A stretch of 46,595 bases of DNA from Streptomyces nanshensis. Its GTDB lineage: Bacteria; Actinomycetota; Actinomycetes; Streptomycetales; Streptomycetaceae. How positions within the stretch are numbered: position 1 is the first letter of the stretch; every line of letters starts with the position of its first letter. A program made the translations under genes and the position numbers. The stretch spans positions 1 to 46,595 of the forward strand of contig NZ_LJGW01000293.1 in NCBI RefSeq assembly GCF_001751255.1. Reading direction: 5' to 3'. Below, piece by piece: positions 26,572-46,595 of the stretch. The notes beneath the pieces are model-generated. The model searched no databases, was not told the origin of the DNA, and saw only the letters and a program-made list of their open reading frames with translations.

Positions 26572-26645
26572 CGGGGTGTGGCGCAGCTTGGCAGCGCGCT
26601 TCGTTCGGGACGAAGAGGTCGTGGGTTCAAATCCCGCCACCCCGA
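26572..26645 (+). tRNA. tRNA-Pro(CGG), integration target
   Basis: A 74-nt cloverleaf: acceptor CGGGGTG pairs with CACCCCG, anticodon arm CTTCG-TTCGGGA-CGAAG gives anticodon CGG, and T arm GTGGG-TTCAAAT-CCCGC with one wobble. No CCA is encoded. AICEs of the pSAM2 type integrate into tRNA 3' ends, and this gene borders a mobile region with an integrase 2.5 kb away, so its 3' part is the probable attachment core. I found no second copy of the 3' part within the window. Confidence 0.95.
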
Positions 26646-26660
26646 CAGAGGAAGTAGCAG

Positions 26661-26755
26661 TTCAGGGTCGGTGTCTTGGTATAGGACACCGACCCTGACG
26701 CGTGTTCGAGGTGCCTCTTGAGATCGTTTGGCGAAATCCTGGCGAAGATCGCGAC
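26661..26755 (+). repeat. int-flank-like repeat, copy 1 (tRNA side)
   Basis: About 95 bp starting 15 bp after the tRNA. It opens with a perfect 14-bp hairpin (26662-26675 with 26685-26698), continues with CTGACGCGTG, then GATCGTTT and GCGAAGATCG. The same order of blocks recurs at 29031-29122 next to the integrase, at about three quarters identity by eye (30 of 40 in the first ungapped block). The hairpin may also terminate the tRNA transcript. Confidence 0.75.
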
Positions 26756-29132: not shown

Positions 29133-30644
29133 CTACACAGTCTCCTTTCTGGCTCTCAGGAGTCGATCCAAGACCGCGACCGGAGACTGCGGATGCATCC
29201 AGCCTCGGGCGTCGAGTGACTCCTCCCACATCTCCGTAAGTCCCTCACACAGGCGCTCACGCATGCCGCGTGTCACGTGGGAGTAGCGAGCTGAGATTGA
29301 CCCATCGATGTGGCCCATGCGTTCGTCCATGAGGACCTTGCGCATGCCCAGGTCCTCCATGTGCGTCTTGTGGGAGTGCCGAAGGCCATGCGGGGTGAGT
29401 CCTCGGGCAACCGGTGTCCAACATGCTGTTGCACGGCCTTGTGAGTTGCGTCCACGTACGGGCACTCCTGGCCAGGGCTCAGCCACCACCGGAACTGGCC
29501 GGGCTTCCTGTGGTGCCTTCTTCGGGTACCAGCCGGAGACTGCCGGAGTGAACAGCCAGGTGGAGAAGCCGTTCCGTCTCCAATGGGCTGTCGCCGCTGG
29601 CTCTGACCTGCCCCGTATGAAGCCCAACTCCGTGACCACCGCCTCCACCCGCTCCCGGGTCGAATCGGTGACGCGCTCTGGATGATTGAGGACGTTGGAG
29701 ACGGTGCCAGTTGACACCCCGGCAGCCCGAGCCACGTCCACGAGTTTCGCGCCCGGTCGCCCGCCCTTCATGACTCCGTTGCCGGAGAAGACGTACCGGT
29801 TCCCGTGGCATGCACATGGGTCCGGTCGTCGTCGGGCAATGTGGTCGCGTACGAGCTGCACCAACCACTCGGGGCCGTCGATGGTCCGGTAGCTGTCGTC
29901 CTTCGGCGGGCAGCGGACCGTCTCGCCTGAATCGAGTTCGTAGAGCTGCCATTCGACCCGGAAGCCAGCCGACCGTACGTACTCGGTCTCCAGGCCCACG
30001 ATCTCGCCCCAGCGCATACCGGTGTATCCCTTGAGGACGCAAGCCACGAACTCGTCATCTCGTCCGGACAGAAGGGCTGCCCGCTCTGCGATGAGCAGCA
30101 ATCCCAGAGGGTCGGTGACCACCTTCTCCGGCCCTCGGCTCTGCGAACGGCCGGCGCGTTTCCCACGGCCGCGTCGTTTCGCTGCCGGGTTGGTCTCCAG
30201 CAGTCCCTCGTCCACGGCGTCGGCGAAGACCAAGTGCAACGTCGAACGCCATGTCTTGACGCTGGATGCCGCGTAGACCTGCGACTCCCGCCGCTCCCAC
30301 GCGCTGACGTCCTCCCGCGAGATGTCCGAGAGGTTCATGGCCTCGAAGTCCGGAAGCAGATGCTCCTCAAGGTGGTGCCTGTAGTTCTGCATCGTGGAGT
30401 GGGCGAGATCCTGCGCGCCGTACCAACGGCTCGCGAACTCGCCGAAGGTCAGTCGGCCTGCCGTAGGGTCGCGCCACTTCCCTTGCCTTACTTTCACCTC
30501 CTGCTCTTCCGCCGCCCGCTTGGCCTCGCTCTTCGTGCGGAACCGGACCACGTTGCCAGCACTGTCGCGCACGGACTCGTACTTGCCAGGGGCCACCTTG
30601 TAGCGGCCCCGGTAGTACGCACCCGTCTTGTGACCGAACGCCAT
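29133..30644 (-). CDS. int: tyrosine integrase with embedded LacI-type HTH
   Basis: A 503-residue tyrosine recombinase, the AICE integrase. The N-terminal arm-binding and SAM-like domain cover about residues 10-160 (SVKTWRSTLHLVFADAV). The catalytic residues are all present: Arg211 in TGMRWGEI, His419/Arg422 in TPHGLRHSH, His445 in GHIDG and the nucleophile Tyr454 in ARYSH. Between the first Arg and the HxxR box, residues 299-346 (near 29607-29750) form a complete LacI-family helix-turn-helix: KLVDVARAAGVSTGTVSN then RVTDSTRERVEAVVTELGFI. The protein is about 100 residues longer than usual. Stop abuts a hairpin. Confidence 0.93.
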   Translation of the reverse strand: MAFGHKTGAYYRGRYKVAPGKYESVRDSAGNVVRFRTKSEAKRAAEEQEVKVRQGKWRDPTAGRLTFGEFASRWYGAQDLAHSTMQNYRHHLEEHLLPDFEAMNLSDISREDVSAWERRESQVYAASSVKTWRSTLHLVFADAVDEGLLETNPAAKRRGRGKRAGRSQSRGPEKVVTDPLGLLLIAERAALLSGRDDEFVACVLKGYTGMRWGEIVGLETEYVRSAGFRVEWQLYELDSGETVRCPPKDDSYRTIDGPEWLVQLVRDHIARRRPDPCACHGNRYVFSGNGVMKGGRPGAKLVDVARAAGVSTGTVSNVLNHPERVTDSTRERVEAVVTELGFIRGRSEPAATAHWRRNGFSTWLFTPAVSGWYPKKAPQEARPVPVVAEPWPGVPVRGRNSQGRATACWTPVARGLTPHGLRHSHKTHMEDLGMRKVLMDERMGHIDGSISARYSHVTRGMRERLCEGLTEMWEESLDARGWMHPQSPVAVLDRLLRARKETV

Positions 30645-31019: not shown

Positions 31020-31356
31020 TGCCGATCCCCTCCTCAGCACTGGTCCCTGCCGCAGAAACCGCAGAAACCGCAGAATCACCCGAACTTGCGGGCTGACCAG
31101 GAGTGTTGGTGTGCCGCCCCGGCTCGCCGCAGAAACCGCGAGAACTGCCGCACAAATGGAGAGAGCACGAACCCTCGGACGGGGCATGGTTGGTCGGGCA
31201 GGTTTTCTGCGGAGGTTTCGCGGATTTCTGCGGCCCGTCGTCACGTCGGCTCTGCCAGGTGCTTTCCGGCTGGTCAGCCCGGGTGCGCTGGGCATTGTGC
31301 GTATTCCGCGGTTTCTGCGGACGGTGCAGCGTACGCGTCGGAGTGCCTGCCCTCAT
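31012..31356 (-). CDS. doubtful 114-codon frame over the iterons
   Basis: The ATG at 31356 overlaps the rep stop (ATGA) and the frame runs to 31012, overlapping the xis start. The peptide is low complexity (QKPRN, QKSAKPPQK, SAVSAVSAAG), and its internal repeats come from the DNA iterons. The coupling pattern suggests a gene; the composition suggests non-coding origin DNA. I lean towards the latter. Confidence 0.3.
   Translation of the reverse strand: MRAGTPTRTLHRPQKPRNTHNAQRTRADQPESTWQSRRDDGPQKSAKPPQKTCPTNHAPSEGSCSLHLCGSSRGFCGEPGRHTNTPGQPASSGDSAVSAVSAAGTSAEEGIGSD
31050..31320. repeat. iteron cluster, candidate oriV
   Basis: The 9-mer CCGCAGAAA occurs exactly at 31050, 31059 and 31127 on the plus strand and exactly inverted (TTTCTGCGG) at 31204, 31225 and 31312; a one-mismatch copy is at 31068, in 9-bp tandem with the first two. 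Six exact copies in 271 bp is far above chance. The cluster lies between rep and xis, the position of replication or excision control regions in AICEs. Likely binding site of Rep or Xis. Confidence 0.7.
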
Positions 31357-33326
31357 GCCTGTCCCTCCCTCACCTGCGGGTGCACGAGGTAGCGCGGAGC
31401 CGGCGGGCGCCCGCGCTTGCCCGTCCGGGGCGGGGTGTGGCTGCGTACGTAGCCGTGTTCTTCGAGGAGCGCGACGGCGGGCTCCAGTTCGGCGATGGTC
31501 GAGAACTCCGAGCGCGAGAGCTTGGCGAACAGGTCGCGGCGGGTGACCGTCTCCCAGCCGTTCGTGGCCAGGACATCGAGGAGCGAACGGGCACGTGCCT
31601 GGGCGGCGTCGGCGCCCATGAGGTCGAAGACCGTCAGGGCGTGGTCCGCGAAGTAATCGGCGATCTCGACGGCGGCCGTCATCGTGTCCGCGTCGACGGG
31701 CTTGGCGTAGCCGTCCCGCAAGTGGCGCGCCAGGTGGAGCAGTCCGGCGATGCGGGCCGCGGCGCCGATCAGCTTCCCCGCCCACTTCCCGACGTGGCCC
31801 AGCCTCCCGCCCTTGACCCGCAGTTGCGGCTCAACGCGCTCCTCGAAGGCAGTGAGTACGGCGGACGCTTCGGACGTCAGGGTGAGCACGACGGGGTCGG
31901 TCCGGTCGGCCAGCGACAAAGTGAGAGCGATGACGTTGCGCTCGTACGCCGCTGCCGTCTGCTCCGGAACGGGCGTCGGGTTGATCTTGCGGTAGCCGAC
32001 GAGCGATTCCGGGAGCGCGTAGAGGAAGCGGGCGAGGAGTCCGCGGCCGTCGAATCCGCGGTTTTTCCCGATCTCCTCCAGGACCGCAGGCTGTACAGCC
32101 AATCCCATGCTCAGGGCCGGGGATTCGATGTATTCCTCCCGCGTGCGGCGGTCGATCCGCAGCCTGTCCCCGGCGTGGCCCTTGAGGAAGACCTCCATGT
32201 TGGGGGTGCCGGAGTAGCGTCCGGCGATGATGTCGAAGATGCCGCCTTCGGCAGACAGCACCGACAGGCGTCCGCTCTGTTCTGCCAGCAGCGAGGAGAT
32301 GGCTTCGGGGGTGGCGTCGTCGACCGTCAGCCTGGGGTGGGGCGGCACCGTGAGCGCTTCCGCCTGCTGTGCCAGTCCGATGGCTTCGGCAACGAGGTTG
32401 TCCCGCTCCGGCCCGTCCGCGTTCGCTGCTTTGGCAGCCGCCTTGTCGGCGGCCTCCTGCGCCATCTTGCGGGTGAGGTCCGCCTCGACGATGAGACCGG
32501 CTGCCTCCTCGGCGATCGCCTTCTCAGCCTCGTACAAGGGCCCCGTCATGGCCGCGAAGACCGCCGACTTGCGGTTCGCCGGCGGGAGAGCCACCACTAC
32601 GTAGAGGTTGGTCGGCTCCCGCCAACGGCCGCGTACCTGCACCACGCTCCGGCCGCCGGCGGCCGTGGCGAGCACGCTCAACGCGAGCGCTCCGGCCATG
32701 TCGGTCGGCGTCTGCGTCTCCTCGGCGATGCCAGCGCAGAAGTCCGCGAGCCAGCCGGGCAGAGCGTGCAGTGGGAAGGTCGGCAGCTTGGGCCTGACGT
32801 TGAGCGGGATCGGCTCCTGCCAGGCTTCGGGCAGCTTCTCCTCTCCGAGTGCGAGCGCCTCCCGTACGTCGGCCGCCGTGGAATCCGGCGCCGTCGCTGC
32901 CTGTACGAGGCGGGTGCCGGCTTCCATCAGCCGCCGACGCTCGGCGAGTTCGTGCACGATCTCCGCGTAGTACGGGGCATGCGCCGTGGTCGGCACTGAC
33001 TGAACGAGGCCGTGCAGGTACGCGGGCCCGCCCGTACGCGACAGGTCCCCGTCGCGGTCCAAGGCGTGCGTCACGGTGATGGGGTCGACGGGCTTCCCCT
33101 GCTCGTGCAGAGCGATCACCGCGCGGTGAATCGTGGCGTGCGCCGGGCGGTAGTAGTCCTCCACGCTCAGCGTCGCCGTCACTTCGGTGATGACGGCCGC
33201 GGAGAGCATCATCGCGCCGACGACGGCCTGTTCCGCTTCCATGTCTGCGGGCGGGCCGCTGCTCTCACTGCGGTCGGGCAGGGACCGCACATTGCCGTAG
33301 GGCGATTCGCCCAGTCCGGATGGCAT
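31353..33326 (-). CDS. element replication protein: DnaB-N domain plus DUF3987
   Basis: A 657-residue protein. Residues about 28-140 (MEAEQAVVGAMML, then DPITVTHALDRDG) match the N-terminal domain of DnaB replicative helicase. From about 175 it is DUF3987 (AICE/phage helicase-primase-like), with a modified P-loop VALPPANRKSAVFAA, LSVLSAEGGIFDIIAGRYSG and SMGLAVQPAVLEEIG. The C-terminus ends with a winged helix (ATNGWETVTRRDLFAKL). The ATG at 33326 is certain: AGGAGG lies 7 nt before it. It takes the place of the pSAM2-type RepSA and should drive element replication after excision. Confidence 0.85.
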   Translation of the reverse strand: MPSGLGESPYGNVRSLPDRSESSGPPADMEAEQAVVGAMMLSAAVITEVTATLSVEDYYRPAHATIHRAVIALHEQGKPVDPITVTHALDRDGDLSRTGGPAYLHGLVQSVPTTAHAPYYAEIVHELAERRRLMEAGTRLVQAATAPDSTAADVREALALGEEKLPEAWQEPIPLNVRPKLPTFPLHALPGWLADFCAGIAEETQTPTDMAGALALSVLATAAGGRSVVQVRGRWREPTNLYVVVALPPANRKSAVFAAMTGPLYEAEKAIAEEAAGLIVEADLTRKMAQEAADKAAAKAANADGPERDNLVAEAIGLAQQAEALTVPPHPRLTVDDATPEAISSLLAEQSGRLSVLSAEGGIFDIIAGRYSGTPNMEVFLKGHAGDRLRIDRRTREEYIESPALSMGLAVQPAVLEEIGKNRGFDGRGLLARFLYALPESLVGYRKINPTPVPEQTAAAYERNVIALTLSLADRTDPVVLTLTSEASAVLTAFEERVEPQLRVKGGRLGHVGKWAGKLIGAAARIAGLLHLARHLRDGYAKPVDADTMTAAVEIADYFADHALTVFDLMGADAAQARARSLLDVLATNGWETVTRRDLFAKLSRSEFSTIAELEPAVALLEEHGYVRSHTPPRTGKRGRPPAPRYLVHPQVREGQA

Positions 33327-33363
33327 GCTGGTGTCCTCCTGTTTCTTGGTTGGGACGGGAGAA

Positions 33364-33408
33364 CCGAAGGCGGCGGGCTGCCTTGGTCGGGAGTGCTGCC
33401 GCCTTCGG
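33364..33408. terminator. hairpin in the rep leader region
   Basis: A perfect 11-bp stem CCGAAGGCGGC / GCCGCCTTCGG (33364-33374, 33398-33408). Its loop contains a second, partial copy of the shared leader sequence (TTGGTCGGGAGTG) found before other element genes. It separates rep from the small-gene cluster upstream. Confidence 0.6.
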
Positions 33409-33475
33409 GCCACCTGTGTGATGTGTGCTTCTGCGCTTCGCCGTTCTGCGTGGCGCGACGATGCGGACTCGGAGT

Positions 33476-33691
33476 TCACGCGGCCTGTCCGAGTGCTGCG
33501 AGCAGTTCGAGCAAGCTGCCGCCGACCGTGACGAGACGCCGTTCGATGGCCCGCCACGAGGCCGCGTCTATCGCCATGAGGCCGGAAGCTGCCGTCACGT
33601 GATCGCCGCGTTCCAGCGCTGTGAGGGCCTCCCGCAGCTCTCCGGCGGCCATGAGCGTGACGTGCTCCGGATCTTCGGCGGAGTGAGTCAT
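33476..33691 (-). CDS. 71-aa hypothetical AICE protein
   Basis: A 71-residue, mostly helical, acidic protein (ELREALTALERGDH, RRLVTVGGSLLELLAAL). No family recognised. Start ATG at 33691 with GGAAGGGAAAGG upstream. It lies in the minus-strand element operon between rep and the transfer genes. Confidence 0.6.
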   Translation of the reverse strand: MTHSAEDPEHVTLMAAGELREALTALERGDHVTAASGLMAIDAASWRAIERRLVTVGGSLLELLAALGQAA

Positions 33692-34318: not shown

Positions 34319-36535
34319 TCATCCGGCGTCGCGCTTTCCGTCACGCTCCGCGACAGTGGCGGTGATGTCGGCGCGGACAATGCCGCGCCGGTTGACGACC
34401 TTGCCCTCCACGCGGCGGCCGATCTGGACGGACTCGATGCGGTAGGGCTTGAGCGCGGCCGTCAACTGCTCGGCGCCCCAGCCGTCGTAGACCTCCGGCC
34501 GCAGATCGGCGAGGCGTTCGGCGACAGTCTCGGACCACGCCTTGGCCTCCTTGGCCGGTACGACGGCGAGGATGTCGGTCAGCAGCGTGTCCCCGCCCTT
34601 GGTCCGCTCCGGCTCTTCCCCGGCGGCGTAGCCGGTCAGGGTTCCTGCCTGGATGCGTGCCTTGCGGGCGCGGGCGCAGATGCGTTCGGCTTCCACGCTG
34701 TCGATGTAGTAGCCGCGGGTGATCTGCGGCTCGTCGAGGGCCCCGGCGAGGTAACCGATGCCCTTGTCGGCCTTGGTGAAGCTGGTGGCCTGGATACCGC
34801 GCCGGTACATCGAGGTGCCCAGCACCATGTCGTTCTCCAGCTGGCCCATCACCCGCAGGCAGAAGCGGGTGCCGACGTTCGCGGAGATGGCTGTGGGCAG
34901 GCTCTCCTTGTCCGGCCGCTGCGTGGCCAGCAGAAGGATGATGCCCAGTGCGCGGCCGCGCTTGATGATGGCCGTGCACAGGTTGCCCGCCTCCTTGCCG
35001 AACTCCCCGTGTGCGAAGAGGTCCTGGCACTCGTCGATGGCCAGGACCAGCGGGTGCAGGCCCAGGGAGCGGTTGGCGGCCAGTTCCGGAGTGACCTTGT
35101 TCTCCGGGCACTTGTCCTTCGGCAGCGACCCGATGACGTCCGCCCGGCGCTCCAACTCCCGGTAGACGTAGCGGATGCCGTCGAGCGCGGCCTCGTAGGT
35201 CTCGTCTTTGGCGCCCTTGGCGTAGTCCGCGGCGACGCTCTCGCCGATCGGGTCCAGGTCGCCGGTGCCCTTCAGCTCGTACACCAGCATCTCGGCCGTC
35301 ACGTCCAGGGCGGCGGCCAGCAGCGGGCGGGCCAGCGCGAAGGTCTTGCCCATGCCGGGCATGGCCCCGATCAGCATGTTGTCGTACATCAGCGTGATGT
35401 CGATGCGGCGTCCACGCTGGTCGGTACCGAACGGCACGGGCTTGAACAGCGATGTCGTACCGGACTTGGCCAACGGCCAGACGGGCTTGTCCATCTTGTT
35501 CAGCGCCTTGTCGCCGACCCACAACACCATGCGGCCGGCGTGCTCGTCCGGGACCGGCTCGGGCCACACGCAACCCAGCGGGCGCCGCAGCCCGGACGCG
35601 AGCCGCTCGCGGCGGTCGAGGATGTCTGCCACCGTCACGCCGTACGGAAGGTCGACGTCCGCTCGCCAACCTGGCCCGTCCCGGGTGATCGGCGCGGGGA
35701 AGCGGATGCCCTCACCGCCCTTGCCCAGCGCCTTGTTGACCTCCGCGATCCCAAGGGCACCCATGGCGCGCTCGACGATCGTGGAGGTGAGGCGTTCGAC
35801 CTGCGTGGCGACGACGGCGCGGGAGACGACGGGCTTGTCCGTCGACATGCCCGCCGCACCCAGCGCCAGGGTGACCGCGGCAACGGCCGTCGACAGCAGC
35901 CACGTCGGGGCCAACACCCACAGCGCCAGCGCACCCGGCAACCCGACCAACAGCGACAGCGCCACCACGGCGCCACGCCAGCGCACCCGACGATCCCGCT
36001 GGCGGGAGAGCTTCAGGTACTCCCCCACGGCCGAGTTGCCCAGGCTGGCCGTGGTCTGACGCATGGCTTCGCCCTCGGCATCGGACGCCCACCGCATGGT
36101 GCCGCCGACGAAGCGGGCGAAGCCGCGCGGCGCCTGGGCAGCGAGCCGCAGCGTGTACCAGGGCAGGCGCAGCGCGTGGTAGAGGCTGGTGTGTCCGGCG
36201 TAGCCGATCAACCAGCCGACGCCGTCCAGCAGTTCCGGCTTCGACCGCAGCCACGCAGGCAGCACCCTGTTTCGCCGGGCACCCCGCACACGCTCCATCA
36301 GCCCCGGGCCGGTGACGGTCAGCGGGTCGACCATCAGCGCCACGTCGCCCGACTCCTCATGCCGACCCTCGTCCTGTGTGCTGGTCGACGCATCGAGAGT
36401 GTCGGTCGGGTTGCTGCGGACCGACCGAGCCTTGTTGAGGTCGAGTACCGCGCCGCCCGACTCGTCGGCAGCCATCTCGGCTTCCAGCCGGGCGAACAGG
36501 TCGTGGTTCTTGTCGTGGTCATCGGAGTGGTTCAC
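34319..36535 (-). CDS. tra: TraB/TraSA-type FtsK-like DNA transfer ATPase
   Basis: A 738-residue membrane translocase that moves double-stranded DNA between mycelial compartments. The N-terminal third has helices around residues 185-230 (VALSLLVGLPGALALWVLAP). The motor has Walker A GAMPGMGKTFALARP, an acidic ELKGTGDLD segment, Walker B LVLAIDECQDLFAHGEFGKE and LLLATQRPDKESLP, typical of FtsK/SpoIIIE/TraB. The C-terminal about 80 residues form the winged helix that reads clt (WGAEQLTAALKP, then GRRVEGKVVNRRG). Start GTG at 36535 follows the shared CCCAACCAAGGAAG leader. Confidence 0.93.
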   Translation of the reverse strand: MNHSDDHDKNHDLFARLEAEMAADESGGAVLDLNKARSVRSNPTDTLDASTSTQDEGRHEESGDVALMVDPLTVTGPGLMERVRGARRNRVLPAWLRSKPELLDGVGWLIGYAGHTSLYHALRLPWYTLRLAAQAPRGFARFVGGTMRWASDAEGEAMRQTTASLGNSAVGEYLKLSRQRDRRVRWRGAVVALSLLVGLPGALALWVLAPTWLLSTAVAAVTLALGAAGMSTDKPVVSRAVVATQVERLTSTIVERAMGALGIAEVNKALGKGGEGIRFPAPITRDGPGWRADVDLPYGVTVADILDRRERLASGLRRPLGCVWPEPVPDEHAGRMVLWVGDKALNKMDKPVWPLAKSGTTSLFKPVPFGTDQRGRRIDITLMYDNMLIGAMPGMGKTFALARPLLAAALDVTAEMLVYELKGTGDLDPIGESVAADYAKGAKDETYEAALDGIRYVYRELERRADVIGSLPKDKCPENKVTPELAANRSLGLHPLVLAIDECQDLFAHGEFGKEAGNLCTAIIKRGRALGIILLLATQRPDKESLPTAISANVGTRFCLRVMGQLENDMVLGTSMYRRGIQATSFTKADKGIGYLAGALDEPQITRGYYIDSVEAERICARARKARIQAGTLTGYAAGEEPERTKGGDTLLTDILAVVPAKEAKAWSETVAERLADLRPEVYDGWGAEQLTAALKPYRIESVQIGRRVEGKVVNRRGIVRADITATVAERDGKRDAG

Positions 36536-36702: not shown

Positions 36703-37716
36703 TCACGACGCCGCCGTCTCCAGCTCAGCGGTCGCGGAGTCCGAGGGGAGCTCAGCGCGCTCGTTCTTGAGTGCGTCGCGCAGCTGCCGGGAGCGTTCCT
36801 GTCCGCAGCCGACTGCGTTGCGGATCGGCTCCGCCTTCAGTTGCTCGACCGTCCACGCGGCGGTCACCACACGAGCGTTGGCCAACTGCTCAGCAAACGT
36901 CAGCCGCAGAACCTTGCTGCCCTTCCGACGCCTCGGAGTCCGTCGCGGACGCGCCGTCCGCGACGCCGCCTGTTCCCTGTTCGACTCGGCGGTCGGGTCG
37001 GATACGCACCGGGTGTCGGGGGCCGACGGCATGGCGTCGGCCGGGGCAAGCTCTCCGAGCTTCAGCAGCACGCGAGTGCGGCGGTCGGCCTTGGAGCGCC
37101 AGCGGCGCCCGTGCTCCTCCCACAAGTCCGCGCGGACGAGCTGTCGCCGCTTCTCCACTTCAAGCGCCTCGCGGTAGCTGGTGATCTCCCACAGCGTCAT
37201 CCGCCGCCACAGAGCGAACGTCGAGGGGAACGCCAGCAGCCAACGCGACCGCCGGATCTTCTCCATGCGCGTACCGGTCACCGCGCCGATACGCGTGGCG
37301 TAGACGTGTGCGGCGACCTCGGAGAGTACGACCCACAGCAGCGGCATCGTGCCGTGCGCGGCTTTGGCCGCCATGTTCTGGCCGGCGGAGACGTTCAGGT
37401 AGCAGGTGACCAAGGTCAGGGCCCAGGGCACCCAACGCACCCACGCCAGCGGCATGTTCATCCGGATCAGCAGCAGGTTGGCTGCGGTGAAAACCGGGAT
37501 CGCGACGTCAATGCCGGTCGGCAGCATCCACGGTTCGGTGAAGCCCCACCGCTCAGCGGCCCTGGAGACCGAGCCGAACGAGACGGCGAGACCAAGCCCG
37601 CCCACCCCAGCGCCACCAGCGCTGACCGTGCTCAACAGGATGCGTTCCGGCCTGCTCAGCGGCGGCACCTTCCTGCCAGTGACGGGAGCGCGCTTGATCA
37701 GGTCAACGCCCATCAC
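36703..37716 (-). CDS. DUF2637 membrane protein (Spd-like)
   Basis: A 337-residue protein. Four hydrophobic helices lie in the first 150 residues (for example VSAGGAGVGGLGLAVSF and WVPWALTLVTCYLNVS), the DUF2637 layout common in AICEs and plasmids. The cytoplasmic C-terminal half is basic and Arg/Lys-rich (RTARPRRTPRRRKG), ending in a helix-turn-helix-like stretch. GTG at 37716 overlaps the previous stop (GTGA); the adjacent ATG at 37713 is the alternative. DUF2637 proteins are tied to transfer or spread in these elements; the precise job is unknown. Confidence 0.8.
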   Translation of the reverse strand: MMGVDLIKRAPVTGRKVPPLSRPERILLSTVSAGGAGVGGLGLAVSFGSVSRAAERWGFTEPWMLPTGIDVAIPVFTAANLLLIRMNMPLAWVRWVPWALTLVTCYLNVSAGQNMAAKAAHGTMPLLWVVLSEVAAHVYATRIGAVTGTRMEKIRRSRWLLAFPSTFALWRRMTLWEITSYREALEVEKRRQLVRADLWEEHGRRWRSKADRRTRVLLKLGELAPADAMPSAPDTRCVSDPTAESNREQAASRTARPRRTPRRRKGSKVLRLTFAEQLANARVVTAAWTVEQLKAEPIRNAVGCGQERSRQLRDALKNERAELPSDSATAELETAAS

Positions 37717-40354: not shown

Positions 40355-41038
40355 GTGCCCCGCCCGTACGTCGTACTCAAGGTCGCAACGTCGATCGACG
40401 GCTACATCGACGACACCAGCGACTCACGACTCATGCTCAGCAATGCGGAGGACTTCGACCGCGTCGACCAGGTCCGCGCCGACTCCGACGCCATCCTCAT
40501 CGGCGCGAGCACAATGCGGGCAGACAACCCCCGGCTCCTGGTGAACAGTGAGGAACGTCGGGCAGCGCGCGAAGCAGCCGGCAATCCGGCCTACCCCCTC
40601 AAGGTCACGGTCACCAAGAGCGGCGGCCTCGACGCCGACCTGAAGTTCTGGCATTACGGCGGTGACAAGGTCGCCTATACGACGGATGCGGGGGCGGAGA
40701 AGCTCAGGGCACGCCTGGGGCAGCTCGCCGAGGTTGTGTCCACCGGCGAGGATCTGGACTTCGGCAAGATCTTGGACGACCTCGGGGAACGGGGCGTCGG
40801 CCGCCTGCTGGTCGAGGGAGGCAGCCAGGTTCACACCGCGTTCCTCTCCCAGAACCTCGTCGACGAGATCAACGTTGTTGTTGCCCCCCTAGTGGTCGGC
40901 CAGGCTGGCGCCCCGCGCTTCCTCAACCCAGCGGACTACCCCTGGCCCACGACCCGGCGCATGACACTTGCCGAGACACGGCAGATCGGCGACGTCGTAC
41001 TCATGCGCTTCCTGCCCAAGCAGGAGAGCGACGCCTGA
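40355..41038 (+). CDS. RibD C-terminal domain / dihydrofolate-reductase-fold protein
   Basis: A 227-residue protein of the RibD-C family (pyrimidine reductase half of RibD). It has VLKVATSIDGYIDDTS, DAILIGASTMRADNPRLLV (NADPH/substrate loop), GVGRLLVEGGSQVHTAFL and VDEINVVVAPLVVGQAGAP. The deaminase half of RibD is absent, so it could be a stand-alone reductase. It follows the XRE gene by 43 nt, and this XRE plus RibD-C pairing is typical of AICE accessory modules. GTG start at 40355 with AGGAG upstream. Confidence 0.88.
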   Translation: MPRPYVVLKVATSIDGYIDDTSDSRLMLSNAEDFDRVDQVRADSDAILIGASTMRADNPRLLVNSEERRAAREAAGNPAYPLKVTVTKSGGLDADLKFWHYGGDKVAYTTDAGAEKLRARLGQLAEVVSTGEDLDFGKILDDLGERGVGRLLVEGGSQVHTAFLSQNLVDEINVVVAPLVVGQAGAPRFLNPADYPWPTTRRMTLAETRQIGDVVLMRFLPKQESDA

Positions 41039-43139: not shown

Positions 43140-44021
43140 ATGGCAAGGGTGGTCGTTGTCCACGGCGTCGGGCAGGAGTTCCGAGGGCCCGTGCTGATGG
43201 GACAAGAAGTAGGTCCGGCGCTTCGAGACGGGGTGCGCCTGGCGGGTGGTTCGAAGCTCGGTCCGGAGGATGTGGCGTGCGCATTCTACGGGCACCTGTA
43301 TTTCGAGGAGGGGACACGCTCCTCAGATCTGCCTCCATGGGACGAGACGGACGTCGAGGAGGGACTTGAATGCGAGCTGCTCTCGGCTTGGTGGGAGCAG
43401 GCAGCGCGGGTTGACCCGGCAGTACTTGGTCCTGGAGCGGGGGGCTCGCGGGGCCCGGTTGGCTTTGGTGCATCTCGGCTGTTGCTGTCGGAGCGTGTCC
43501 GGGCAGCTCTAGACGCGTTGAGTGGTTCGCGCTTCTTCGCGAATGTGTCCGACCGGCTTCTCATCCTTGCCTTGAAGCAGGTGCGTCGGTACATGACGGA
43601 GTCTGACCTGAGGTACGAGGCCCAGGCTCGCGTCTCTGCGGAGATCACCAAGGAAACGAGGGTGCTGGTGGCACACTCACTTGGCTCAGTTGTTGCCTAT
43701 GAAGCCCTCTGTGCGCACCCTGAATGGCCGGTCACCGATTTCGTCACTGTGGGGTCTCCGTTAGGGATGCGCAACGTCGTCTTCGATCGGCTCCAGCCGT
43801 CTCCTGTCCACGGGACCGGCGCTTGGCCTGGCGGTGTCGTGCGCTGGACGAACCTTGCCGATCGCGCCGACATCGTCGCCCTTCCCGACCGGCTGGCATC
43901 GCGTTTCGGTGACCGGGTCGAGGACGCTTCGATCACCAATGGTGTCCGAATGCACGATCTGCTGCGCTACCTCACTGCAGCACGCACAGGCTGGGCCGTT
44001 GCACAGGGCTTGGAGGACTGA
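43140..44021 (+). CDS. alpha/beta serine hydrolase partner of the caspase gene
   Basis: A 293-residue alpha/beta hydrolase. It begins MARVVVVHGVGQEF, the HGVGQ oxyanion motif of lipase-like hydrolases. The nucleophile elbow is VLVAHSLGSVVAYEAL with Ser180 (A instead of G before HSLG), an acidic candidate lies in LADRADIVALPD, and the catalytic His is His272 in NGVRMHDLLRYL. ATG at 43140 with GGGGGAG seven nt upstream. The stop is 4 nt from the caspase-STAND gene, so the two are one operon. Likely a lipase or esterase effector, or a processing partner cut by the protease. Substrate unknown. Confidence 0.85.
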   Translation: MARVVVVHGVGQEFRGPVLMGQEVGPALRDGVRLAGGSKLGPEDVACAFYGHLYFEEGTRSSDLPPWDETDVEEGLECELLSAWWEQAARVDPAVLGPGAGGSRGPVGFGASRLLLSERVRAALDALSGSRFFANVSDRLLILALKQVRRYMTESDLRYEAQARVSAEITKETRVLVAHSLGSVVAYEALCAHPEWPVTDFVTVGSPLGMRNVVFDRLQPSPVHGTGAWPGGVVRWTNLADRADIVALPDRLASRFGDRVEDASITNGVRMHDLLRYLTAARTGWAVAQGLED

Positions 44022-44025
44022 AGCG

Positions 44026-46595
44026 ATGGCAGCGCAGGGTCGCAGGTTTCTGATCGCGATGGGTGTTGCTGTGTACGCAGACGCGGCCATCGACGATCTG
44101 CCCGGTGTCCGTCAGGACGTTGAGCGTGTGCGCGAGTTGCTGGAACCGATGGACTACACGGCGGTCCTGCCGGAATTGGCGGCCGACCCCGACAAGAGCC
44201 TGGTGGAAGGCATCGAGGACTGGGTGCTGGAGACCGATCTGAGTTCCCGGGACACAGTGATCCTCTACTTCGCCGGCCACGGCGTGAAGGCTGCCGATCG
44301 GCATTACCTGCTGTGTGCCAACAGCAGGCCCGGGCGTTACACCTCAGCACTGGCCAGCGAGGATCTGTGCCGCCCTCTGATGACAAGTCCGGTCGGACAT
44401 CTCCTGGTCGCGCTCGATACCTGCTATGCCGGTGCAGGTACGGACGAGATTGCGAGACTTGCTGCCGAGCTGGCTTCTTCGCAGCGAGGCGAAGCCGGAC
44501 GCTGGATGATGGCGGCTGCACGAGGCAAGGAACGAGCGTGTGAGAACGCCTTCGTGGAAGCCTTGGCCAGTGTCTTGGACCAGCCACGGGCGGGCGCCCA
44601 CCAGGAGTACCTGGGCGTACGCGAAGTCACCGAACGGATCAACGAGTACTTCCGGGACAAGCACCCTTCGCAGCATGCTCGCCACTCGACGATTGACAGT
44701 GACGGACACGACCCCTTCTTCCACAACAAGGCTCACATCAGGGGCTTGCCGGCTGACGACCTGGACGTCGACACTCTGACGCGGCTGCGCAGGCAGACCC
44801 GCGGCCACTTCGATGCGCGAGGTCGGGGCGTTGAGAACGCTAGCGATCGCGGGGACTATTTCACCGGCCGGACGGCCGCACTAACGGCACTGGCTTCGTG
44901 GTTGAGTGCACCGCGGCACGACCGTAAGGCACGAGTGATCACCGGTGACCCTGGGTCGGGGAAGTCTTCGCTGCTCGGCCGCCTCCTGATGCTGACAGAC
45001 GCCGACCACCCGGCCCGTGCCACCGCTTCTGCACAAGCCTTGCCCCCAGAGGGGTTGGCGGTCGTTCGCCTACACGCCCGGCGCGTCGCGTTGGAGGATC
45101 TGGCCACCGACCTGTCCGCCGCGCTCGGTCTGTCCACGGACAGCGACCGGGACGAACTCCTCGCTGCGATGGGCGAGCGCACCAAGCCAATCGTGATCGT
45201 TGTGGACGCTCTCGATGAGGCTGGCACAGCGGGGGACGCCATCGAGGGCAACCGCATTGCTCGTGAGCTCCTACAACCCTTAAGCACGCTTTCCGCCATA
45301 CGACTAATTGTTGGGACTCGACGCCCGCTACTCCCTGCTCTGGGCAGAGCGATTGTGACTCTCGACCTGGACGAACCCGAACACATCACCAGTCAGGACG
45401 TGACCGACTACGCCTGCACTCTTCTCCTTGATGCTCAGGATCTTGATAGTCGCTCTCCGTACGCGGGCCGTCCTGGGGAAGCGAGTGAGGTAGCCAAGGG
45501 CATAGCCGCGCGGGCGGGGAAATCGTTCCTGGTCACGCGGATGACGGCACGTGCTCTGGTTCACGGCCAAATCACCGTGGACACCACCTGCCCCGGCTGG
45601 GAGGCGGAACTGCCCAGCGACGCGGGCCAAGCATTTGCCGCGTACCTCGAACGATTCGGCTCTGATCGTCCGAAAGTGGAGCGTCTGCTGCGGCCCCTTG
45701 CCTACGCCCAAGGGGCAGGGTTGCCCTGGTCCACGATATGGGCGCCGCTGAGCGAAGCTCTCTCGGAAGTCCCCTGTCCGCAGGAGGACCTGCGTTGGCT
45801 CCACGAGCACGCTGGGGCCTACATCGTCGAGACCTCCACACCCAACGGATCGGCCTATCGCCTATTCCACGAAACAATGGCCGAGCACCTGCGTGAACGA
45901 AGCGACGACGCAGCCGCCCACCAAGTAATCACAACCGCGCTCCTGGCCCGGGTTCCCCGCGATCCACGCACCGGTCTCCGCGACTGGCCGGCCGCCCACC
46001 AATACGTACGAGACCATCTCGCCACACACGCGGCAGCAGCCGACTCTCTCGACAGAGTGCTGCACGACAGCGAATTCCTCATCCACGGCACGCCGACCCA
46101 TCTGCTGCGCGCACTTCACGCCGTGCACACTGACGAGGGTCGCCTTCGCCGCGCCATCTATCGGGCCTCAGGACCTGTACATTCCTCCGCCAGCCCGCAA
46201 CAGCGCCGTGACATCCTCGCCATCGACGCCACCCGTTACGCAGAAACCGCTCTCGCCCTAGAACTCTCCAAGGAACGCCCATGGCGCCCTCAGTGGGCAA
46301 CTGGAGTTCTGGTACACCCTGCACTCCACAGCATCCTCTCCGATCGCGGTTCCGTGGATGCTGTTGCGTGCACGGTGATTGACGGTCGGGCTCATGCGGT
46401 CACCGGAGGCAGCGACGAGGACGTCCGGGTGTGGGATCTCGTGGACGGTTCGCTTCGCGCCACGCTGTCTGGGCACACGGATTGGATCCATGCTGTTGCG
46501 TGCACGGTGATTGATGGTCGGGCTCATGCGGTCACCGGAGGCAGCGACGACGGGGAGGTGCGGGTGTGGGATCTCGTGGACGGTTCGCTTCGCGC
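44026..46595 (+). CDS. caspase-like protease / STAND NTPase / WD40 protein, 3' end outside window
   Basis: At least 856 residues, frame open to the window edge. Residues 1-230 are a caspase-like (peptidase C14) domain: VILYFAGHGVK with catalytic His85 and HLLVALDTCYAG with catalytic Cys133. A FTGRTAALTAL motif (residues 279-289) leads into the NTPase: Walker A GDPGSGKSS at 307-315, Walker B IVIVVDALDEAG with Asp394, and GTRRP at 430-434 as sensor. A helical/winged region spans about 480-770. From residue 776 WD40 repeats begin (VTGGSDEDVRVWDL). The logic is sensor, NTP switch, protease. ATG at 44026 lies 4 nt after the hydrolase stop. Confidence 0.92.
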   Translation, partial: MAAQGRRFLIAMGVAVYADAAIDDLPGVRQDVERVRELLEPMDYTAVLPELAADPDKSLVEGIEDWVLETDLSSRDTVILYFAGHGVKAADRHYLLCANSRPGRYTSALASEDLCRPLMTSPVGHLLVALDTCYAGAGTDEIARLAAELASSQRGEAGRWMMAAARGKERACENAFVEALASVLDQPRAGAHQEYLGVREVTERINEYFRDKHPSQHARHSTIDSDGHDPFFHNKAHIRGLPADDLDVDTLTRLRRQTRGHFDARGRGVENASDRGDYFTGRTAALTALASWLSAPRHDRKARVITGDPGSGKSSLLGRLLMLTDADHPARATASAQALPPEGLAVVRLHARRVALEDLATDLSAALGLSTDSDRDELLAAMGERTKPIVIVVDALDEAGTAGDAIEGNRIARELLQPLSTLSAIRLIVGTRRPLLPALGRAIVTLDLDEPEHITSQDVTDYACTLLLDAQDLDSRSPYAGRPGEASEVAKGIAARAGKSFLVTRMTARALVHGQITVDTTCPGWEAELPSDAGQAFAAYLERFGSDRPKVERLLRPLAYAQGAGLPWSTIWAPLSEALSEVPCPQEDLRWLHEHAGAYIVETSTPNGSAYRLFHETMAEHLRERSDDAAAHQVITTALLARVPRDPRTGLRDWPAAHQYVRDHLATHAAAADSLDRVLHDSEFLIHGTPTHLLRALHAVHTDEGRLRRAIYRASGPVHSSASPQQRRDILAIDATRYAETALALELSKERPWRPQWATGVLVHPALHSILSDRGSVDAVACTVIDGRAHAVTGGSDEDVRVWDLVDGSLRATLSGHTDWIHAVACTVIDGRAHAVTGGSDDGEVRVWDLVDGSLR
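46358..46595 (+). repeat. tandem near-identical WD40 repeat DNA
   Basis: Two successive WD40 units, starting at 46358 and 46490 (132-bp period), are almost identical in DNA. Differences are one silent GAC/GAT and an indel/substitution patch of four to five codons around the GSDEDV versus GSDDGEV loop. The second copy runs to the window edge. Such homogenised repeats indicate recent amplification or gene conversion. Confidence 0.9.

What the first reader, a model, noticed from the sequence alone, without database searches (positions are those of the whole stretch)
46358..46595. Near-identical WD40 repeats indicate recent repeat turnover in the sensor
Two 132-bp WD40 units are nearly identical in DNA, with change concentrated in one loop (GSDEDV versus GSDDGEV). 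Housekeeping WD40 blades diverge strongly from each other. Homogenised repeats with a hot spot of change are what a fast-evolving recognition surface would show.
Basis: partly seen in the sequence, partly recalled or inferred. Interest (0 to 1): 0.65.

Follow-up and report, generated by a model that had tools for sequence, protein, structure and literature searches.

The report
Homogenised WD40 sensor of caspase-STAND receptor
At the edge of this Streptomyces contig lies a bacterial immune-type receptor whose sensing end is built from near-identical copies of one module that differ mainly at the contact points expected to touch a target, a pattern already known from other bacterial and fungal receptors.

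Summary
Window 46345-46595 has two WD40 units (132 bp, and 119 of 135 bp), 107 of 112 aligned bases identical. The contig ends inside the array. Contig C314 very probably holds the rest: one partial and eight further units, three identical over 132 bp, then a stop. It also carries a 64-bp exact copy of the att site of a tRNA-Pro-integrated element that starts in the window.

The gene is caspase-STAND-WD40, behind an alpha/beta-hydrolase gene. Variation falls in two loops, not one: the published top-face contact positions R1-2, R1 and D-1 are the three most variable of 42 columns; in 10 of 10 homogenised arrays amino-acid change there exceeds silent change elsewhere. A related stable WD40 family keeps these residues between species; the sensors do not. 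The nearest relatives on the tree have diverged arrays, so homogenisation recurs.

Unit number is mostly conserved (13 in 17 of 33 arrays). Strains could not be compared.

Verdict: real and well supported; a new member of a known kind (highly-repetitive WD40 STAND receptors; fungal HET-D/E; cyanobacterial WRAP). Its immune function is inferred.

The parts
46345..46476 (+). WD40 unit 1 (RGSVDAVACTVIDGRAHAVTGGSDEDVRVWDLVDGSLRATLSGH), 132 bp
46477..46595 (+). WD40 unit 2 (TDWIHAVACTVIDGRAHAVTGGSDDGEVRVWDLVDGSLR...), 119 of 135 bp, cut by the contig end
44026..46595 (+). caspase-STAND-WD40 receptor gene, open at the contig end; its 3' part is most probably contig C314 (L009) 12771-11551, minus strand
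   Evidence: linkage
44059..44592 (+). N-terminal caspase-fold domain (PF00656, 32.8 bits, cut-off 21.4), His85 and Cys133 present
44848..45405 (+). STAND NTPase domain (nSTAND1 and AAA_16 above cut-off, NACHT just below), Walker A Lys313 and Walker B Asp394 present
43140..44021 (+). alpha/beta-hydrolase partner gene, ends 4 bp before the receptor's start codon; putative triad Ser180, Asp244, His272
26604..26667 (+). att site: 3' part of tRNA-Pro plus 21 bp, repeated exactly (64 bp) on C314 (L009 10703-10640, minus strand)
26572..26646 (+). tRNA-Pro (CGG), integration target of the element
29133..30644 (-). tyrosine recombinase (integrase) of the element, with a LacI-type HTH match inside
31353..33557 (-). 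DUF3987 / DnaB-N helicase-like protein of the element
34319..36535 (-). FtsK/TraB-like DNA translocase of the element (NCBIfam plasmid_TraB 26.9 bits, far below its cut-off of 800; no Pfam match)
36703..37716 (-). DUF2637 protein of the element

Best explanation
The gene encodes a STAND-type (NLR-like) receptor: a caspase-fold effector, an NTPase switch and a C-terminal WD40 sensor, probably of two propellers. It forms a two-gene system with an alpha/beta-hydrolase and travels on a tRNA-Pro-integrated, conjugative-type element. The WD40 array is kept nearly uniform by recent repeat amplification or conversion inside the gene, while the residues on the propeller's top face (R1-2, R1, D-1) are driven apart by selection, so that binding specificity can change quickly on a constant scaffold. 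Proposed mechanism: binding of a phage or other non-self protein to the top face triggers NTP-dependent oligomerisation; the caspase becomes active and cleaves its partner, the hydrolase, or another target; growth arrest or cell death follows. Shown by computation: architecture, conserved catalytic residues, homogenisation, hot-spot variation, repeated switching between homogenised and diverged arrays, conserved partner. Inferred: ligand, oligomerisation, caspase activation, hydrolase as substrate, defence role.
For: Domains. Caspase His and Cys and both Walker residues in 48 of 48 proteins; hydrolase Ser180, Asp244 and His272 in 36 of 36. Hydrolase gene beside the receptor in 35 of 40 loci examined (29 upstream on the same strand, 5 downstream, 1 divergent). 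Homogenisation; the C314 part meets the published highly-repetitive definition (0.80). Hot spots: the three a-priori columns rank 1-3 of 42 in the own array; pN there 0.45 against pS elsewhere 0.13; in the 10 arrays with median unit DNA identity of at least 0.70, pN_hot > pS_rest in 10 of 10, bootstrap bound above zero in 9 of 10; hot pN exceeds both bottom loops in 10 of 10. Between species: hot residues less conserved than the rest in 18 of 18 comparable pairs among the 22 closest, unlike the stable family. Switching: own gene is sister to L040+L089, which have diverged arrays; the homogenised label needs 7 changes; all 10 own units have their nearest neighbour in the own gene among 18 genes compared. 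Structure: the last six units plus tail are predicted with pLDDT 91.5, pTM 0.90 as a propeller-like all-strand fold with WD40 matches. Linkage of the contigs.
Against: Silent change at the hot codons is also high (mean pS 0.47, pN 0.49 over the 10 arrays), so pN/pS inside them is about 1; the case for selection rests on silent change elsewhere in the same units. L080 has a nearly constant D-1 and a bootstrap interval that includes zero. Over all 35 arrays tested pN_hot exceeds pS_rest in 31, the bootstrap excludes zero in 20, and the hot columns beat random triplets (below 0.05) in 27. Blade-to-blade variation at these positions also occurs in the stable family. Unit number is mostly constant. 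No ligand is known; PADLOC gives only a weak match of the caspase part (20.2 bits). C464 and C314 are not physically joined; an empty site was not found and flank synteny was inconclusive.
Confidence: 0.66

Rival explanations
1. Neutral recent amplification: the array was rebuilt by unequal crossing-over, and the variable positions are simply unconstrained surface residues without diversifying selection.
For: Three identical units show very recent copying; pN and pS are about equal within the hot codons; independent, recent amplification of propellers is published as a general process (PMC9218822, passages); the stable family also varies from blade to blade at these positions.
Against: Bottom-face loops, also exposed, vary less in 10 of 10 homogenised arrays; hot amino-acid change exceeds silent change elsewhere in 10 of 10; in the stable family hot residues are kept between species about as well as the rest, so they are not intrinsically free.
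Confidence: 0.22
2. A WD40 scaffold for assembling a fixed cellular complex, not a sensor; homogeneity is favoured because it gives a stable propeller.
For: Hu et al. argue that highly-repetitive WD40 proteins are of higher stability (PMC5587647, section 11).
Against: Hot residues differ almost completely between some species (identity 0.13-0.15, against 0.06-0.10 for unrelated positions, in five pairs that are 77-82% identical before the array); nearest relatives on the tree have diverged arrays; the array is fused to a caspase and NTPase and lies on a mobile element.
Confidence: 0.08
3. Assembly artefact: units were collapsed, duplicated or drawn from two different genes.
For: Draft of 731 contigs; both contigs end inside the array; the fungal counterparts cannot be assembled from Illumina data (PMC12222747, abstract passage).
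Against: Units differ at defined codons; only one 5' half (E <= 1e-50) and one 3' half were found in the assembly; homogenised arrays also occur in genomes of very few contigs (L041 from 2 contigs, L061 from 3); the att repeat ties the contigs together. The exact number of identical units remains unsure.
Confidence: 0.04

Closest known systems
Highly-Repetitive (HR) WD40 proteins, Hu et al. 2017 (PMC5587647)
   Same: Prokaryotic, near-identical units, diversity at predicted hot-spot residues; the own array meets the definition (0.80).
   Different: That study is a general survey; here the carrier is a caspase-STAND protein with a hydrolase partner on a mobile element, and orthologs with and without homogenisation are compared.
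HET-D/HET-E (HNWD) fungal NLRs of Podospora (PMC12222747, PMC4986451)
   Same: STAND protein with C-terminal WD40 units of high internal identity and a few hypervariable positions on the predicted interaction surface.
   Different: Caspase fold instead of HET domain; bacterial; ligand unknown; strain alleles and repeat-number polymorphism not shown here.
WRAP of Nostoc punctiforme and other recently amplified propellers (PMC9218822)
   Same: STAND protein with a recently amplified WD40 region; amplification independent even in close homologs.
   Different: Cyanobacterial; coupled to a TIR-STAND gene, not to a hydrolase gene.
Alpha/beta-hydrolase-caspase pairs of VMAP ternary conflict systems (Kaur et al. 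2020, PMC7159879)
   Same: Caspase-superfamily protein with a neighbouring alpha/beta-hydrolase gene; actinobacteria; predicted conflict role.
   Different: No VMAP-C match and no MoxR or vWA gene recognised beside it; the caspase is fused to a STAND NTPase and WD40.
canu caspase-nuclease defence loci (PMC12799240)
   Same: A caspase with a co-encoded enzyme that could be its substrate.
   Different: Partner is an alpha/beta-hydrolase, not an MBL-fold nuclease; no Ig-like domain among the Pfam matches.

Membership tests
Highly-Repetitive WD40 (Hu et al. 2017) | six of eight contiguous repeats with all pairwise identities at least 0.7 | tested here: met
   0.80 for the C314 part
Highly-Repetitive WD40 (Hu et al. 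2017) | diversity at hot-spot residues on a conserved background | tested here: met
   R1-2, R1, D-1 rank 1-3 of 42 columns
STAND / NLR-like receptor | effector domain, STAND NTPase with Walker A and B, C-terminal repeat region | tested here: met
STAND / NLR-like receptor | ligand-induced NTP-dependent oligomerisation | not testable with these tools
   needs biochemistry
HNWD-type receptor (HET-D/E) | HET effector domain | tested here: not met
   caspase domain instead
HNWD-type receptor (HET-D/E) | repeat-number polymorphism among strains | not testable with these tools
   one genome per species; between species 13 units in 17 of 33 arrays, others 8 to 20
VMAP ternary system | VMAP-C domain with MoxR and vWA genes downstream | tested here: not met
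   no VMAP-C among the Pfam matches; between the receptor stop and the att repeat on C314 (about 0.85 kb) only same-strand ORFs of 182 and 120 aa among those of at least 120 aa, too short for MoxR or vWA proteins
EACC1-caspase system | caspase of the EACC1-associated type with an upstream EACC1 gene | tested here: not met
   NF047832 74.9 bits against cut-off 140; the upstream gene is an alpha/beta-hydrolase
Diversity-generating retroelement target | a template repeat homologous to the variable region in the same genome | tested here: not met
   array DNA found only on C464 and C314 of the own assembly; a reverse transcriptase was not searched for
Actinomycete integrative conjugative element (carrier) | tRNA-integrated element with integrase, replication and TraB-like genes between att repeats | tested here: inconclusive
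   64-bp att repeat, integrase, DnaB/DUF3987, DUF2637; TraB match below cut-off; the two ends lie on two contigs

The most novel reading that the evidence does not exclude
Bacterial receptors of this family cycle between a homogenised, freshly copied sensor and a diverged, specialised one. Re-copying a single blade through a sensor of nearly fixed size would reset binding specificity, and selection on three contact residues per blade would then build a new one: a protein-coded, retroelement-free way of renewing immune recognition that spreads between strains on a conjugative-type element, parallel to but independent of the fungal HET-D/E system.
Probability: 0.3. Interest if true: 0.7.

Novelty: new member of a known kind. 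Interest (0 to 1): 0.42.

Why it matters
It gives a bacterial case in which orthologous immune-type receptors can be compared with their sensor array in both states (homogenised and diverged), with a stable related WD40 family for contrast. That makes the idea of repeat turnover as a generator of recognition diversity directly testable in an easily grown genus, and it names the residues to test.

Tried and rejected
Diversity-generating retroelement as the cause of the hot spots: not supported, no second copy of the array DNA in the own assembly. VMAP ternary and EACC1-caspase systems: considered, defining parts not met. An empty integration site downstream of tRNA-Pro: of 11 relatives' loci searched only the att core matched. 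Placing C314 by a two-component system in its flank: scattered, probably paralogous matches, inconclusive. A first hot-spot test lost the R1-2 residue in many units because overlapping units were trimmed; it was replaced, which takes the three positions from the sequence.

What was left out: of 57 places in other genomes I fetched the top 40 as sensors and 7 as the stable family and did not fetch 10. To the 40 I added L080-L083 and L089-L091; L084-L088 were dropped as shorter copies of L080, L083 and L089-L091. The hydrolase search covers only the first 40. The hot-spot test was run on 24 arrays and, when I checked this report, on 11 more: 35 of the 40 arrays listed, the two own pieces pooled; the 5 not run have 3-5 detected units. 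'Homogenised' means median unit DNA identity of at least 0.70 (10 arrays); 6 of these pass the stricter published definition, and in those 6 pN_hot exceeds pS_rest in 6, the bootstrap bound being above zero in 5. G121 (L098) has the same gene pair, but its frames are interrupted by what looks to me like adapter sequence; it was looked at and not used.

Full report
What is there. The window is contig C464 (46,595 bp) of a 7.72 Mb draft in 731 contigs. The genus is Streptomyces by inference: same-genus handles G382 and G333 have the same coordinates as the named Streptomyces records L080 and L083. An ATG at 44026 opens a frame that runs off the contig end. It encodes a caspase-fold domain (PF00656, 32.8 bits, cut-off 21.4), a STAND NTPase (nSTAND1 33.1 bits, cut-off 27.1; AAA_16 36.1, cut-off 32.6; NACHT 25.9, just below 26.7) and the beginning of a WD40 array (PF00400 25.3 bits on the short piece, just below 27). 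Four bases upstream ends a gene for an alpha/beta-hydrolase (43140-44021).

The observation. Unit 1 (46345-46476, 132 bp) and unit 2 (46477-46595, 119 of 135 bp) share 107 of 112 aligned bases.

The rest of the gene. The only other place found in the assembly with this DNA is contig C314 (L009), whose last 1.2 kb on the minus strand carry one partial and eight further units and then a stop. Three units are identical over 132 bp and a fourth differs from them by one base. Three facts tie C314 to C464. A 64-bp exact repeat of the 3' part of tRNA-Pro and its following bases lies at window 26604-26667 and L009 10703-10640, in the orientation expected for the two ends of one integrated element. The C-terminal tail on C314 resembles the tails of the orthologs of the C464 gene (by eye). 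And the assembly shows one 5' half (E <= 1e-50) and one 3' half. The element part in the window holds an integrase, a DUF3987/DnaB-like protein, an FtsK/TraB-like translocase, DUF2637 and GntR genes. The array has at least 11 units (2 on C464, 9 on C314, one of them partial) plus a degenerate end; the number in the gap is unknown.

Spread. Homologs of the caspase-NTPase part at E <= 1e-50 occur in 51 of 295 genomes of the genus, of which six (G087, G039, G199, G095, G227, G218) have only the stable family described below.

Hot spots. Wu et al. 2012 (PMC3419727, passages) define the top-face contact residues R1-2, R1 and D-1 from sequence. In the own array these three columns are the most variable of 42 (heterozygosity 0.73, 0.64, 0.76 against a mean of 0.10 elsewhere; permutation 0.0001). 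In 35 arrays tested the three columns are more variable than random triplets (below 0.05) in 27; exceptions are L043, L091, L089, L077, L073, L075, L076 and L079. pN_hot exceeds pS_rest in 31 of 35 and a bootstrap over units excludes zero in 20 of 35. In the 10 arrays with median unit DNA identity of at least 0.70 it does so in 10 of 10 (ratio 1.18-3.57) and 9 of 10. Bottom-face loops change less in 10 of 10 of these. Against this, silent change at the hot codons is also high, so pN/pS inside them is about 1.

Contrast with a stable family. Seven places belong to another protein (841 aa in five of seven) that matches only about residues 547-768 of the query; in the one member scanned, the 25 of 33 Pfam matches shown are all propeller models. 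It has 13 units in 7 of 7 genes and keeps unit order (12 or 13 of 13 positional nearest neighbours in 21 of 21 pairs). Its hot residues differ from blade to blade but are kept between species about as well as the rest (0.72-1.00 versus 0.77-0.96); the six pairs with L103 are lower at hot sites (0.72-0.74 versus 0.77-0.84). In the caspase-STAND sensors, among the 22 pairs closest before the array, 18 could be compared and hot residues are less conserved than the rest in 18 of 18. L046-L047, with all 18 units in place, have hot 0.43 and other 0.73, a distance like that of the stable pair L103-L105 (hot 0.72, other 0.77). In five of six pairs among L060, L066, L068 and L069, 77-82% identical before the array, hot identity is 0.13-0.15, little above the 0.06-0.10 of unrelated positions; the sixth, L068-L069, has 0.59 against 0.70, and L073-L075 0.55 against 0.66. 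Most stable-family pairs are closer overall than the sensor pairs, which limits the contrast.

Turnover. On a tree of 48 caspase-NTPase sequences the own gene is sister to L040+L089 (support 99/90), which have diverged arrays (median DNA identity 0.51 and 0.49) and partly keep unit order with each other (9 of 13); the next branch, L080, is homogenised (0.77). The homogenised label needs 7 changes, at least 5 forced by well-supported branches; it is somewhat clustered (9 of 500 shuffles as low). All 10 own units have their nearest neighbour in the own gene among 18 genes compared; best identity to any other of these genes is 0.69. So homogenisation happened repeatedly and within genes. Unit number is conservative: 13 in 17 of 33 arrays with at least 8 units, others 8, 11, 12, 15, 18 or 20. 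With the degenerate end, 13 would give 14 blades, two seven-bladed propellers; this is inference. AlphaFold2 gives the last six units plus tail pLDDT 91.5 and pTM 0.90, with six four-stranded blades and strands for a seventh (that the ring closes is my reading); the best PDB matches are WD40 proteins and the designed propeller Tako8.

The partner. The hydrolase gene lies beside the receptor in 35 of 40 loci (none found in L045, L050, L055, L070, L074). Its Ser180, Asp244 and His272, a likely triad, are invariant in 36 of 36, and the receptor's caspase dyad and Walker residues in 48 of 48. Ten of 25 members match the PGAP1-like hydrolase family weakly (best E 8.6e-6); no PDB sequence matches the family at 0.01; the predicted fold (pLDDT 90.0) matches lipases and esterases only weakly (best E 3.3e-3). 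A lipase-like effector cleaved or controlled by the caspase is my inference. Kaur et al. 2020 (PMC7159879, passages and section 9) report that caspase-type VMAP proteins always have a neighbouring alpha/beta-hydrolase gene.

What is known. Hu et al. 2017 (PMC5587647; abstract, section 11 and passages) already describe highly-repetitive prokaryotic WD40 proteins with diverse hot-spot residues. The propeller-amplification paper PMC9218822 (passages) describes recently and independently amplified propellers, among them WRAP in a STAND protein, and reports a proposed role in prokaryotic innate immunity. HET-D/E of Podospora (PMC12222747, passages and section 17; PMC4986451, passages) show the same combination in fungi. 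canu loci (PMC12799240, passages), bacterial death-domain systems (PMC8195603, passages) and retroelement-diversified STAND sensors (PMC10907252, passages) were compared. My literature searches did not bring up a paper on this hydrolase plus caspase-STAND-WD40 pair, but listings were capped and many journals are not held. I file this as a new member of a known kind.

Noticed in passing
window 29133-30644 (minus): Tyrosine integrase with a strong LacI-type HTH match (E 1e-16, residues 301-343) between its central and catalytic parts, an unusual arrangement.
   Followed up: no
L082 16126-17736: Fourteen tRNA genes clustered about 3 kb downstream of the Amycolatopsis thailandensis ortholog.
   Followed up: no
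L077 (G275): WD40 array with an identity peak at a lag of 12 units (0.79 versus 0.51-0.61 at other lags), suggesting that a multi-blade block was duplicated.
   Followed up: partly
L098 (G121:C9:146403-156256): Same hydrolase plus caspase-STAND gene pair with a homogenised-looking array, its frames interrupted by what looks like sequencing-adapter sequence in the assembly.
   Followed up: partly
L099-L105: A conserved WD40 protein of the genus (841 aa in five of seven) shares the module before the WD40 array with the receptors; function unknown.
   Followed up: partly
L045, L050, L078: Relatives of the caspase-NTPase part with no WD40 unit detected by my profile, suggesting exchange of the sensor domain.
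   Followed up: no
window 40355-41038 (+): RibD-C-terminal-type reductase (below NCBIfam cut-offs) beside an HTH protein, between the element's transfer-type genes and the receptor pair.
   Followed up: no
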